DNA of 64,000 nt from NCBI RefSeq assembly GCF_030252325.1, contig NZ_CP126981.1:4960001-5024000 (forward strand). Reading direction: 5' to 3'. The DNA is from Candidatus Mycobacterium wuenschmannii. Lineage in GTDB: Bacteria; Actinomycetota; Actinomycetes; Mycobacteriales; Mycobacteriaceae. Made by a program: the position numbers and the translations under genes. Numbering within the stretch: the stretch's first letter is position 1; every line of letters begins with the position of its first letter. Below are positions 52,905-55,113 of this stretch, in pieces. The notes beneath the pieces are model-generated. The model did no database searches, was not told the DNA's origin, and was given only the letters and a program-made list of their open reading frames with translations.

Positions 52905-55055
52905 ATGCCTACACCGCCTATGTCAGCCATCACTGCCAAGATGGACGCCATGGCGGCGATCGGTGTTCAGACAGACTCATTGACTGCCGAACTCGATGAC
53001 GAACAGCGCGAGGCCGTGCTCGCTCCGCGCGGCCCGGTCTGCGTGCTCGCAGGCGCGGGAACAGGCAAAACCCGCACGATCACGCATCGCATCGCCCAGC
53101 TCGTCGCGACCGGGCATGTCGCCGCGGGCCAGGTGCTGGCGGTGACGTTCACCCAACGTGCCGCGGGCGAGATGCGAACGCGACTGCGGACACTGGGCGC
53201 CGCCGCGCAGACCGGCGTCGGCGGAGTGCGGGCGATGACGTTTCACGCCGCCGCCCACCGGCAGTTGCGCTACTTCTGGCCGCGGGTGGTCGGCGACACC
53301 GGTTGGCAGCTACTCGACACCAAGTTCGCGGTCGTCGCCCGCGGGGCCACCAGCGCGGGGATGAAGCTGACCACCGACGACGTCCGCGACGTGGCCAGCG
53401 AGATCGAATGGGCCAAGGCGTCGCTGATCTCTCCGGAGCAGTACCCCGACGCGGTGGCCGCCGCCTCCCGCGATGTTCCGCTGGACGCCGCCAGGGTCGC
53501 CGCGGTCTACACCGCCTACGAGTCGCTGAAGGCCCGCAACGACGGGGTCACCCTGCTCGACTTCGACGACCTGCTGCTGCACACCGCCGCCGCGATCGAG
53601 AACGACGCCGCGGTAGCCGAGGAATTCCGAAATCGCTACCGCTGCTTCGTCGTTGACGAATACCAGGACGTCACACCGCTGCAGCAGCGGGTGCTGTCGG
53701 CGTGGCTCGGCGACCGCGACGACCTCACCGTCGTCGGTGACGCCAACCAAACCATCTACTCGTTCACCGGCGCCTCGCCGCGCTACCTGCTGGATTTCTC
53801 GCGCCGCTTTCCGGACGCGACCGTGGTTCGCCTCGAGCGCGACTACCGGTCCACGCCGCAGGTGGTGTCACTCGCCAACCGCGTGATCGCCGCCGCCCGC
53901 GGGCGGGTGGCCGGCAGCAAGCTGCACCTGGTCGGTCAGCGGGATCCCGGGCCGGAGCCGACCTTTCGCGACTACCCCGACGAGGTCGCCGAGGCCGCCG
54001 CGGTGGCCAAGTCGATCGCCAAGCTGATCGACGCCGGCACGCCGCCGTCGGAAATCGCGGTGCTTTACCGGATCAACGCGCAGTCCGAGGTCTACGAGGA
54101 GGCGCTGACCGAGGCGGGCGTCGCCTATCAGGTCCGCGGCGGCGAAGGCTTCTTCAGCCGTCAAGAGATCCGGCAGGCCCTCTTGGCGCTGCAGCGCGCG
54201 GCTAACGCAGAGCTTGGTGGGCCGCTGCCGGAGGTGGTCCGCGGGCTGCTCGAGCCGCTGGGCCTGACCGCCGAGCCGCCGACCGGAACCCGGGCCCGAG
54301 AGCGCTGGGAAGCGTTGGTGGCGCTGGCTGAACTGGTCGACGAGGAAGTCGCGCAGCGGCCGTCGCTGGACATGGCGGAGCTCGTAGCCGAGCTCAGGAC
54401 CCGCGCCGACGCACGGCACCCACCCGTCGTGCAGGGCGTCACGCTGGCGTCGCTGCACGCGGCCAAGGGGCTGGAATGGGACGCGGTGTTCCTGGTCGGC
54501 CTGACCGATGGGACGCTGCCTATCTCCCACGCGCTGGCCAAGGGCGGCGAGAGCGAGGCCGTCGAGGAGGAGCGCCGGCTGCTGTACGTCGGAATCACTA
54601 GGGCGAGAGTGCATTTGGCGATCAGTTGGGCGCTGGCCCGCAATCCGGGCGGACGGCAGGGGCGCAAGTCGTCGCGCTTCCTCAACGGCTTGTCGCCGCA
54701 GACGCAGGTCGATCCGTCGCCGAGCAAGCCGCGGCGCAAGAACGCCCCGGCCTCGCGCTGCCGGATCTGCAACAACCAGCTGACCAGCCCAGCGGCGATC
54801 ATGTTGCGGCGCTGCGAGACGTGCGCCGCCGACATCGACGACGAGCTGCTGCTCGAGCTGAAGGACTGGCGGCTGCGCACCGCCAAGGAGATGAACGTCC
54901 CGGCCTACGTCGTGTTCACCGACAACACGTTGATCGCGATCGCCGAACTGCTGCCCACTGACGACGCCGCGCTGGTCGCGATCCCCGGTATCGGTGCCCG
55001 CAAGCTGGAGCAGTTCGGCCCGGACGTGCTGGAACTGGTCCGCAGCCGGGCATAA
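52905..55055 (+). CDS. uvrD2: ATP-dependent DNA helicase UvrD2
   Basis: Encodes 716 residues from the ATG at 52905 with agaggg upstream; ATGs at 52920, 52941 and 52950 are alternatives. The superfamily 1A motor has LAGAGTGKTRTITHRI, VVDEYQDVTPLQQR, GDANQTIYSFTGAS and VQGVTLASLHAAKGLEW. A tetracysteine zinc motif (CRICNNQL and CETCAADI) joins the motor to a C-terminal HRDC domain. These two features define UvrD2, which acts in mycobacterial DNA repair. The stop lies within a 9-base direct repeat. Confidence 0.95.
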   Translation: MPTPPMSAITAKMDAMAAIGVQTDSLTAELDDEQREAVLAPRGPVCVLAGAGTGKTRTITHRIAQLVATGHVAAGQVLAVTFTQRAAGEMRTRLRTLGAAAQTGVGGVRAMTFHAAAHRQLRYFWPRVVGDTGWQLLDTKFAVVARGATSAGMKLTTDDVRDVASEIEWAKASLISPEQYPDAVAAASRDVPLDAARVAAVYTAYESLKARNDGVTLLDFDDLLLHTAAAIENDAAVAEEFRNRYRCFVVDEYQDVTPLQQRVLSAWLGDRDDLTVVGDANQTIYSFTGASPRYLLDFSRRFPDATVVRLERDYRSTPQVVSLANRVIAAARGRVAGSKLHLVGQRDPGPEPTFRDYPDEVAEAAAVAKSIAKLIDAGTPPSEIAVLYRINAQSEVYEEALTEAGVAYQVRGGEGFFSRQEIRQALLALQRAANAELGGPLPEVVRGLLEPLGLTAEPPTGTRARERWEALVALAELVDEEVAQRPSLDMAELVAELRTRADARHPPVVQGVTLASLHAAKGLEWDAVFLVGLTDGTLPISHALAKGGESEAVEEERRLLYVGITRARVHLAISWALARNPGGRQGRKSSRFLNGLSPQTQVDPSPSKPRRKNAPASRCRICNNQLTSPAAIMLRRCETCAADIDDELLLELKDWRLRTAKEMNVPAYVVFTDNTLIAIAELLPTDDAALVAIPGIGARKLEQFGPDVLELVRSRA

Positions 55056-55113
55056 GCCCGTGGCGATCGCTAGCGCGGCGAAGCCGGGCGCAGTGGGTCG
55101 ACACCATAAGCCC
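55051..55113 (+). mobile_element. 45-base mini-element flanked by 9-base direct repeats
   Basis: CATAAGCCC occurs at 55051-55059 and again at 55105-55113. Between them, 55060-55104, is a copy of the dispersed element that starts GTGGCGATCGCTAGCGCGGC, continues GAAGCCGGGCGCAGTGGGTC and ends GACAC. The flanking repeat looks like a target-site duplication and contains the uvrD2 stop codon. The element sits just upstream of the whiB7 promoter. Confidence 0.72.

What the first reader, a model, noticed from the sequence alone, without database searches (positions are those of the whole stretch)
55051..55113. 45-base mini-element bounded by a perfect 9-base direct repeat
CATAAGCCC flanks a GTGGCGATCGC...GTCGACAC block on both sides, the hallmark of a transposed element with target-site duplication. 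Related blocks lie at 18125, 23190, 29796 (two tandem units) and 36592. The element has no coding capacity, so it would need a transposase acting in trans. The insertion sits between the uvrD2 stop codon and the whiB7 promoter.
Basis: seen in the sequence. Interest (0 to 1): 0.75.

Follow-up and report, generated by a model that had tools for sequence, protein, structure and literature searches.

The report
Mobile DNA hairpin beside uvrD2
A 45-letter DNA hairpin appears to have inserted itself at the end of a repair gene in this mycobacterium and to have duplicated the few letters at its landing site; it is one of a large scattered family, related to a tandem repeat known from tuberculosis-group bacteria, and the enzyme that moves it is unknown.

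Summary
CATAAGCCC flanks a 45-bp block (55060-55104); the left copy carries the uvrD2 stop codon. The block belongs to a dispersed family: 37 copies at E<=0.01 here, 0-138 in other genomes of the genus, none in 16 genomes of other genera. It is a transposed element: 14 of 24 loci aligned to the two nearest relatives lack it in at least one. Flanking duplications exceed chance (3 of 47 independent loci perfect over 9 bp, none in controls), but most loci keep none and lengths vary (8-11 bp, single cases of 17 and 29), unlike a standard MITE. The unit is a hairpin whose end sequence differs between copies yet stays complementary (29 of 48 loci fully paired; 12 expected). Orthologous copies tend to lose pairing (small sample), so pairing may serve moving rather than a resident role. 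Insertions favour TAG and stop codons. No convincing IS with matching ends was found; Y1 transposases and reverse transcriptases are each missing from several copy-rich genomes. The family includes a BCG tandem unit (probably VNTR ETR-F) and M. intracellulare rep-PCR targets; MIRUs are a sequence-distinct neighbour family. Verdict: real mobile hairpin, new variant of a known kind, mover unknown.

The parts
55060..55104 (+). 45-bp hairpin element, core copy (GTGGCGATCGC...GGGTCGACAC)
   Evidence: 68.4 bits to model R1; the 4th outer pair is a G/A mismatch
55051..55059 (+). left copy of 9-bp direct repeat CATAAGCCC
55105..55113 (+). right copy of 9-bp direct repeat CATAAGCCC
55053..55055 (+). 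uvrD2 stop codon TAA, inside the left repeat
   Evidence: ORF 52713-55055, start uncertain; Pfam UvrD-helicase and HRDC
55114..55131 (+). block directly after the right repeat (TGGTCAGAAAATCGGTTG), largely conserved in relatives, taken to be promoter-proximal DNA of whiB7
   Evidence: read by eye in the orthologues; promoter role recalled
55462..55725 (+). WhiB-family gene (whiB7 by position)
   Evidence: PF02467, 57.4 bits
18128..18157 (+). shortened copy of the element
23188..23226 (-). copy of the element, directly after a TGA stop in its own orientation
29797..29843 (+). first copy of a tandem pair
29854..29900 (+). second copy of the tandem pair
   Evidence: three relatives carry tandem arrays of another stem-loop unit in the same intergenic gap
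36593..36637 (+). copy of the element
36583..36591 (+). left copy of 9-bp direct repeat GACACCCCT
36640..36648 (+). right copy of 9-bp direct repeat GACACCCCT
33524..33555 (-). core of a MIRU-type element (the neighbour family), flanked by AGGCGTCGA at 33554-33562 and 33500-33508

Best explanation
The block is one copy of a dispersed, non-coding mobile hairpin of mycobacteria. SHOWN: many copies per genome; presence/absence differences between close relatives; flanking duplications at a small but significant share of sites, of variable length; a hairpin whose outer pairs covary between separate insertions; flanks rich in TAG, often a stop codon; tandem arrays of core plus 8-13 bp spacer. INFERRED: the mobile form is the folded strand (cruciform, single-stranded DNA or RNA), recognised by its inner conserved bases (GATCGC...GCGGGTC) plus paired ends rather than by end sequence. 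It is joined into a staggered break at a TAG-containing site, and filling-in makes the duplication; later slippage between duplications makes VNTR arrays or removes the element. The moving enzyme is probably a structure-specific nuclease or recombinase common to the genus; it was not identified. Here the element landed in the uvrD2 stop codon and left uvrD2 and the block before whiB7 intact.
For: Copies. Orthologous gap: full element in 3 and right-end remnants in 2 of 80 named relatives, none seen in the others (by eye); absent in 7 of 7 further relatives. 14 of 24 aligned loci lack the element in at least one of the two nearest relatives. Duplications: 4 of 51 loci 9/9 and 5 of 51 >=8/9, against 0 and 0.1 in 500 re-pairings; without an array artefact and three orthologues of this locus 3 of 47, against 0 (9/9) and 0.08 (>=8/9), and no control reaches the observed mean. 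Covariation: 10 of 16 pairs with double changes, 54 double-change cells against 10.8 shuffled; 29 of 48 loci with all seven outer pairs against 12.1 permuted, 0 of 5000 reaching it. Orthologous copies: of 16 changed outer-pair cells 11 go to or from a mismatch, 4 are one-sided but paired, 1 is compensatory. TAG within 12 bp: left 16 of 48 vs 3 of 48 farther away (P 0.0016), right 16 vs 4 (P 0.005).
Against: 46 of 51 loci lack a good duplication by the strict test, and the automatic overlap test on filled/empty pairs is noisy: 10 of 21 comparisons gave zero or negative overlap, among them 55060 against M. kyorinense. With the 15 loci found by sequence alone, the count of fully paired ends is not significant (7 vs 4.7, 313 of 5000), although paired cells are (95 of 105, 0 of 5000). 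The orthologue test rests on 9 loci and 13 comparisons that repeat some events (the 11 cells are about 7 separate differences) and are not polarised. CTAG on the left is not significant (8 vs 2, P 0.09). No moving enzyme was found.
Confidence: 0.7

Rival explanations
1. Ordinary MITE: an internally deleted IS with terminal inverted repeats, moved in trans by a DDE transposase that makes an 8-9-bp duplication.
For: Short inverted ends, perfect 9-bp duplications at 55060 and 36593, no gene of its own, many copies.
Against: Outer ends vary as long as they pair; duplication lengths from 8 to 29 bp; no convincing IS with matching ends in this genome. IS transposase families themselves were not surveyed, and other genomes were not searched for lone ends.
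Confidence: 0.15
2. Not mobile now: an RNA structure or protein-binding site (terminator, attenuator, translational coupling element) kept by selection and spread by rare recombination.
For: Conserved hairpin; copies sit mostly between genes, often at stop codons; PMC2734929 reports that longer arrays upstream of fpg1 (probably this family) go with more fpg1 mRNA in M. tuberculosis.
Against: Presence/absence differs between species at 14 of 24 loci; outer stems of resident copies mostly differ by lost or gained mismatches; same element in unrelated contexts and orientations; no Rfam match at or above gathering score in the window and none of this family at E<=5 in 54000-56500.
Confidence: 0.12
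3. REP/REPIN-like element moved by a Y1 (RAYT) transposase.
For: Hairpin with compensatory changes and high copy number; Y1_Tnp is present in two copy-rich genomes, G023 (102) and G043 (88).
Against: Y1_Tnp (PF01797) is absent from G000 and from the copy-rich G001 (138), G017 (76), G044 (122) and G045 (56), while G002 has nine matches and no copies; flanking duplications are not expected for that chemistry (recalled).
Confidence: 0.03

Closest known systems
ETR-F / VNTR3239 of the M. tuberculosis complex (rnc-fpg1 gap; PMC2734929: abstract, passages and one results section seen)
   Same: A 79-bp intergenic unit printed for BCG (PMC9870133, passages seen) matches the consensus at 40 of 45 positions, with paired ends GTGATGA/TCATCAC and a 10-bp spacer. 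The published ETR-F unit sizes 55 and 79 bp equal 45+10 and 45+24+10. The gap is 279-358 bp in the complex and 1-54 bp in the other species tabulated, an empty-site pattern.
   Different: Described there as a typing repeat unique to the complex, not as a dispersed mobile hairpin. That the BCG unit is ETR-F rests on unit size and a recalled map position; I did not see the ETR-F sequence itself.
Repeat behind the M. intracellulare rep-PCR primers (PMC10117815, passages seen)
   Same: Primers 1 and 2 match the consensus with short typical flanks at 20 of 20, primer 4 at 21 of 22, primer 5 at 22 of 24; the authors report primer 2 in seven other species.
   Different: Used as fingerprint target; 'transpos' and 'hairpin' do not occur in the main text.
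MIRU, mycobacterial interspersed repetitive units (PMC12548453, one passage seen; Supply et al. 1997 recalled, not seen)
   Same: Short, described as apparently mobile, at gene junctions, tandem VNTR arrays, same genomes; the window's MIRU-type copy also has a 9-bp flanking repeat.
   Different: Different core (GACGATGC...GAGGAGGAG); model R1 gives only chance-level matches in the three loci with MIRU-type or similar arrays, L131, L132, L143. That this core is the M. tuberculosis MIRU is recalled.
Yeast mitochondrial GC clusters (PMC4478555, passages seen)
   Same: 42-nt palindromic, mostly intergenic, proliferating units with a duplicated target and no settled mechanism.
   Different: Two-nucleotide target (AG), organelle genome, no homology claimed.
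Prokaryotic MITEs (PMC10969869, word search only)
   Same: Non-autonomous, inverted ends, flanking duplications (general features recalled).
   Different: Variable duplication length, ends kept by pairing, no matching IS found; the review's main text does not contain 'mycobacteri' or 'MIRU'.

Membership tests
MITE | terminal inverted repeats | tested here: met
   7-bp inverted ends, 29 of 48 loci fully paired
MITE | target duplication of fixed length | tested here: not met
   8-11 bp, single cases of 17 and 29 (lengths partly read by eye); absent by the strict test in 46 of 51 loci
MITE | autonomous IS with matching ends in the genome | tested here: inconclusive
   No lone right end at <=1 mismatch; 25 lone left-end matches at <=1 mismatch (reversed control 0), one with a right end (<=2 mismatches) within 6 kb, which encloses no transposase among the two ORFs scanned; only G000 tested, part of that stretch is masked
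MIRU | core sequence of the MIRU type (GACGATGC...GAGGAGGAG; recalled as MIRU) | tested here: not met
   R1 gives no match below E 0.4 in L131, L132, L143; the consensus lacks the pattern
MIRU | insertion at gene junctions with stop/start codons | tested here: met
   12 of 15 G000 loci with a co-directional upstream ORF have its stop within 5 bp of the left end or 12-13 bp past the right end (own ORF caller)
MIRU | tandem arrays of units of about 50-80 bp | tested here: met
   21 of 48 loci are arrays, spacers 8-13 bp
ETR-F repeat family | sequence identity of the unit | tested here: inconclusive
   BCG 79-bp unit: 40 of 45 positions identical plus a 24-bp internal insertion; that this unit is ETR-F is inferred, the ETR-F sequence was not seen
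REP/REPIN | hairpin with compensatory changes | tested here: met
REP/REPIN | RAYT/Y1 transposase in the genome | tested here: not met
   PF01797 in 9 of 27 genomes (among them G023 and G043), not in G000, G001, G017, G044, G045
Retrotransposed (SINE-like) element | reverse transcriptase in copy-rich genomes | tested here: not met
   PF00078 in 11 of 27 genomes (G000 one weak match, G023, G044 strong), none in G001, G010, G017, G041, G042, G043, G045
Known Rfam RNA | covariance-model match | tested here: not met
   only a tRNA reaches gathering score in the window; no match at the element at E<=5

The most novel reading that the evidence does not exclude
ETR-F-type repeats and MIRUs are two branches of one class of mycobacterial mobile hairpins. 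Only the folded, fully paired form moves; it is recognised by shape and inner bases and inserted at TAG-containing staggered breaks by a host enzyme that is neither a DDE transposase, a Y1 transposase nor a reverse transcriptase. The VNTR loci used to type tuberculosis would then be slippage products of such insertions.
Probability: 0.3. Interest if true: 0.85.

Novelty: new variant of a known kind. Interest (0 to 1): 0.6.

Why it matters
Tandem repeats of this kind are standard typing markers for mycobacteria, and in what I read their origin is not explained. The data tie a BCG tandem unit, probably ETR-F, to a dispersed family of inserting hairpins, with empty sites, target preference and duplications that can be studied in harmless species. 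The pattern 'pairing present between insertions, tending to be lost in resident copies' makes a specific prediction: the folded strand is the mobile form. It also warns that such repeats may move as well as slip, which matters for typing and for reading intergenic variation next to genes such as whiB7 and fpg1.

Tried and rejected
Y1/RAYT transposase as mover: disfavoured, absent in several copy-rich genomes though present in G023 and G043. Reverse transcriptase: likewise, though present in G023 and G044 and as one weak match in G000. IS with matching ends: none convincing in G000. The left-end pattern has 25 matches at <=1 mismatch outside known copies (reversed control 0), the right-end pattern 38 at 2 mismatches outside the copies scored above 30 bits (reversed control 36); one left/right pair lies in element order within 6 kb. 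It encloses a DUF222 and a beta-lactamase-family gene and matches the model only at chance level. Lone ends in other genomes and IS transposase families were not searched. Phage carriage: no match in 50,697 phage records. Two of 72,556 plasmid records match, both Mycobacterium; one of these copies sits at the TAG stop of a WXG100 gene. Rfam: no match for the element. Automatic duplication lengths from filled/empty pairs were too noisy and are not used for claims; lengths 8, 17 and 29 were read by eye, 9 to 11. A resident regulatory RNA as main reason for the covariation: disfavoured, on a small sample. Replication-strand bias: not tested. Orientation: where both neighbouring genes point the same way, 9 copies (10 if whiB7, missed by my caller, is counted) point with them and 3 against; suggestive only.

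Rows dropped: the four G000 matches below 30 bits that I had fetched (L112-L115) and one at 22.5 bits not fetched; the partial copy at 679989; three orthologues of 55060 before and the 48-locus test (kept). On re-checking, the 9/9 match at L160:4272 proved an array artefact (its left flank ends in a piece of a further unit), so repeats the test without it and without the three orthologues: 3 of 47. Only 150 of 20,392 first-look candidates were scored, so the copy count is a lower bound; the same cap applies. Of 45 places found by the flank query I fetched 41. Copies in relatives come from a chosen subset: 13 of the 20 regions, plus L020, L022, L024 and L137.
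Full report
What is there. CATAAGCCC stands at 55051-55059 and 55105-55113 and nowhere else in the window. Between the two copies lies a 45-bp block. The left repeat contains the stop codon of a UvrD helicase gene with an HRDC domain; downstream lies a WhiB gene, by position uvrD2 and whiB7 (names recalled). The window belongs to a 5,102,433-bp single-contig genome. The nearest relatives by UvrD2 in the named collection are Mycobacterium sp. 1245111.1 and the MAG Actino1 (both 93%), another MAG (88%), then M. kyorinense, M. celatum (86, 85%) and M. shimoidei (84%).

A family. BLAST with 86 bases finds 21 matches in the genome. A covariance model built from 17 copies finds 42 at E<=1, of which 37 at E<=0.01, with only 150 of 20,392 candidates scored. 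In relatives, 11 of 25 genomes of the genus (own genome included) have matches at E<=0.01 and 0 of 16 genomes of other genera; the highest counts are 138, 102 and 76. The five genomes reached through named loci have 24 (sp. 1245111.1), 28 (Actino1), 88 (M. kyorinense), 122 (M. celatum) and 56 (M. shimoidei). Consensus: GTGGCGATCGCAAGCGCGGCGAAGCCGGGCGCAGCGGGTCGCCAC. Of 48 loci compared, 21 are tandem arrays, with spacers of 8-13 bp.

It inserts. In 80 named orthologues of the uvrD2-whiB7 gap, read by eye (in L098 the printed stretch was mis-set), three carry the full element between AAAA(G/C)CCC-like repeats (L020, L022, L024), two carry right-end remnants (L021, L031), and I see no element in the others; many show one CAAA(C)C(C/G)CAGGTCAG-like stretch. 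Seven of seven other relatives with both flanks aligned are also empty. For 24 other places in the genome I searched the two nearest relatives with one joined flank query and fetched 41 of the 45 places found. Of 29 loci tried, 24 could be aligned (for five no region had been fetched). Of these 24, 14 lack the element in at least one of the two relatives with both flanks matched: L017, L102, L014, L010, L019, L105, two sites in L009, L012, L104, L111, L106, L107, L101.

Duplications are real but not the rule. Over 51 loci (29 here, 22 in relatives) 4 have a 9/9 match between left and right flank and 5 have >=8/9; re-pairing flanks between loci 500 times gives means of 0 and 0.1 (maxima 0 and 2), and the mean score 5.37 exceeds the largest control, 5.08. 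One of the four (L160) is an array artefact, and three loci are orthologues of the present one. Without these four, 3 of 47 are perfect, against 0 (9/9) and 0.08 (>=8/9, maximum 1) in controls, and the mean 5.23 exceeds the largest control, 5.11. So the great majority lack a good duplication by that test. Some have one when the boundary or length is freed: ATAGCTAGC at L018, GCGATGCC/GCGATGTC at L101, GCGAAGGCCTGACGTCG/GCGAAAACCTGACGTCG at L104, and a 29-bp one in relative G041 at the second L009 site (the last three read by eye). In arrays the spacer can equal the outer flank: L154 left (11 of 11), L157 right (11 of 11), L137 right (11 of 11) and left (10 of 11). Length is therefore variable. 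An automatic estimate was noisy, 10 of 21 comparisons giving zero or negative overlap, and is not used.

Targets. Within 12 bp of the element TAG occurs on the left in 16 of 48 loci and on the right in 16 of 48, against 3 and 4 of 48 in stretches 28-40 bp away (P 0.0016 and 0.005). CTA: right 12 against 0 (P 0.0002), left 10 against 3 (P 0.07). CTAG: right 6 against 0 (P 0.03), left 8 against 2 (P 0.09). By my own codon-usage ORF caller, 15 of 29 loci have a co-directional upstream ORF; in 9 its stop lies within 5 bp of the left end, and in 3 the ORF runs through the element and stops 12-13 bp beyond it. The consensus is open in three frames, which makes such insertions tolerable.

Hairpin. 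Copies fold into an imperfect hairpin (5 sequences folded; energies are better than shuffled DNA at z -2.7 to -2.2, but only -1.1 for the copy in question). Over 102 aligned copies (72 distinct rows) 95.5% of pair cells are standard, 10 of 16 pairs show double changes and 54 cells are double changes against 10.8 in shuffles; slid controls are far lower. That alignment was fitted to the structure, so I repeated the test on the outer seven positions with one copy per locus: 29 of 48 loci are fully paired, 12.1 expected by permutation, none of 5000 reaching it; for the 29 loci of this genome 13 against 4.5. For the 15 loci found by BLAST alone fully paired ends are not significant (7 against 4.7, 313 of 5000), but paired cells are (95 of 105, 0 of 5000). 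In nine loci with orthologous copies, 16 of 91 outer-pair cells differ: 11 go to or from a mismatch (about 7 separate differences), 4 stay paired by a one-sided change and 1 is compensatory. The simplest reading is that pairing is demanded or renewed when the element moves and then decays in place. The sample is small and not polarised.

What moves it. Y1 transposases are in 9 of 27 genomes, including the copy-rich G023 and G043, but not in G000, G001, G017, G044 or G045. Reverse transcriptases are in 11 of 27, including G023, G044 and weakly G000, but not in G001, G010, G017, G043 or G045. Right-end patterns at <=1 mismatch lie only in known copies (15 of 15). Left-end patterns also occur outside them (1 of 12 perfect, 24 of 42 with one mismatch; reversed control 0); the perfect one scores 14.5 bits, E 0.43 with the model. 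One left/right pair lies 3.7 kb apart in element order; it encloses a DUF222 and a beta-lactamase-family ORF, no transposase among the two scanned. I therefore favour a structure-specific host activity and staggered joining, as inference.

What is known. The family has been seen in print without being called mobile in the passages I read. A 79-bp unit deleted in BCG cultures (PMC9870133, passages) is this element: 40 of 45 positions, paired ends GTGATGA/TCATCAC, a 24-bp internal insertion and a 10-bp spacer. Its size, and its map position as I recall it, point to ETR-F/VNTR3239. PMC2734929 (abstract, passages, one results section) describes that locus as 55- and 79-bp repeats between rnc and fpg1, confined to the M. 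tuberculosis complex, with longer arrays going with more fpg1 mRNA. Four of five M. intracellulare rep-PCR primers (PMC10117815, passages) match the consensus with short flanks at 20 of 20, 20 of 20, 21 of 22 and 22 of 24; the fifth has the MIRU-type core. MIRUs, described as apparently mobile and inserting at start codons (PMC12548453, one passage), are a second family here: a MIRU-type pattern matches in 20 of 27 genomes, 43 times in this one, and at one intergenic site three relatives carry arrays of that or a similar unit where this genome carries the present element. PMC2267715 (passages) lists stem-loop families of M. tuberculosis, one containing MIRU; whether Myt-1 or Myt-8 is the present family I could not check. 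Nine literature searches were made; in the passages I read I saw no description of target duplications or stem covariation for this family. Only open-licence papers are held, so the older MIRU papers were not seen.

Verdict. A real mobile hairpin, new as an interpretation of a known repeat; mover unknown.

Noticed in passing
window 33500-33562 (minus strand): A MIRU-type element core (GACGATGC..hairpin..GAGGAGGAG) flanked by a perfect 9-bp repeat AGGCGTCGA, so the second family may insert in the same way.
   Followed up: partly
L143, L132 and L131 against window 29797-29900: The same intergenic gap is occupied by the present element here and by tandem arrays of the MIRU type (L143, L132) or a similar unit (L131) in three relatives, a shared hot spot.
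   Followed up: partly
MIRU-type matches: The inner arms of MIRU-type elements vary widely in sequence while many remain complementary (for example GCAGGCC..GGCCTG, GCGGTCC..GGACCG); seen by eye, not counted.
   Followed up: no
L102, L014, L106 (G000 561746, 951188, 3221945): Insertion gives the upstream ORF a new C-terminal tail that runs through the element and ends 12-13 bp past it.
   Followed up: partly
L165:11519-11588: A copy with a 25-bp extra stretch inside the loop, like the 24-bp insertion of the BCG unit.
   Followed up: no
L223 (M. branderi plasmid pJCM12687) and L224 (M. riyadhense plasmid): Copies on large mycobacterial plasmids; in L223 the copy sits at the TAG stop of a WXG100 gene.
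   Followed up: partly
L023 (M. kyorinense): The uvrD2-whiB7 gap is empty although M. celatum carries the element: either precise loss by slippage between the repeats or separate insertions.
   Followed up: no
L225 (G000 3471800-3477600): The only left-end/right-end pattern pair within 6 kb in element order encloses a DUF222-family ORF; both ends are weak (1 and 2 mismatches) and at chance level by the model.
   Followed up: partly
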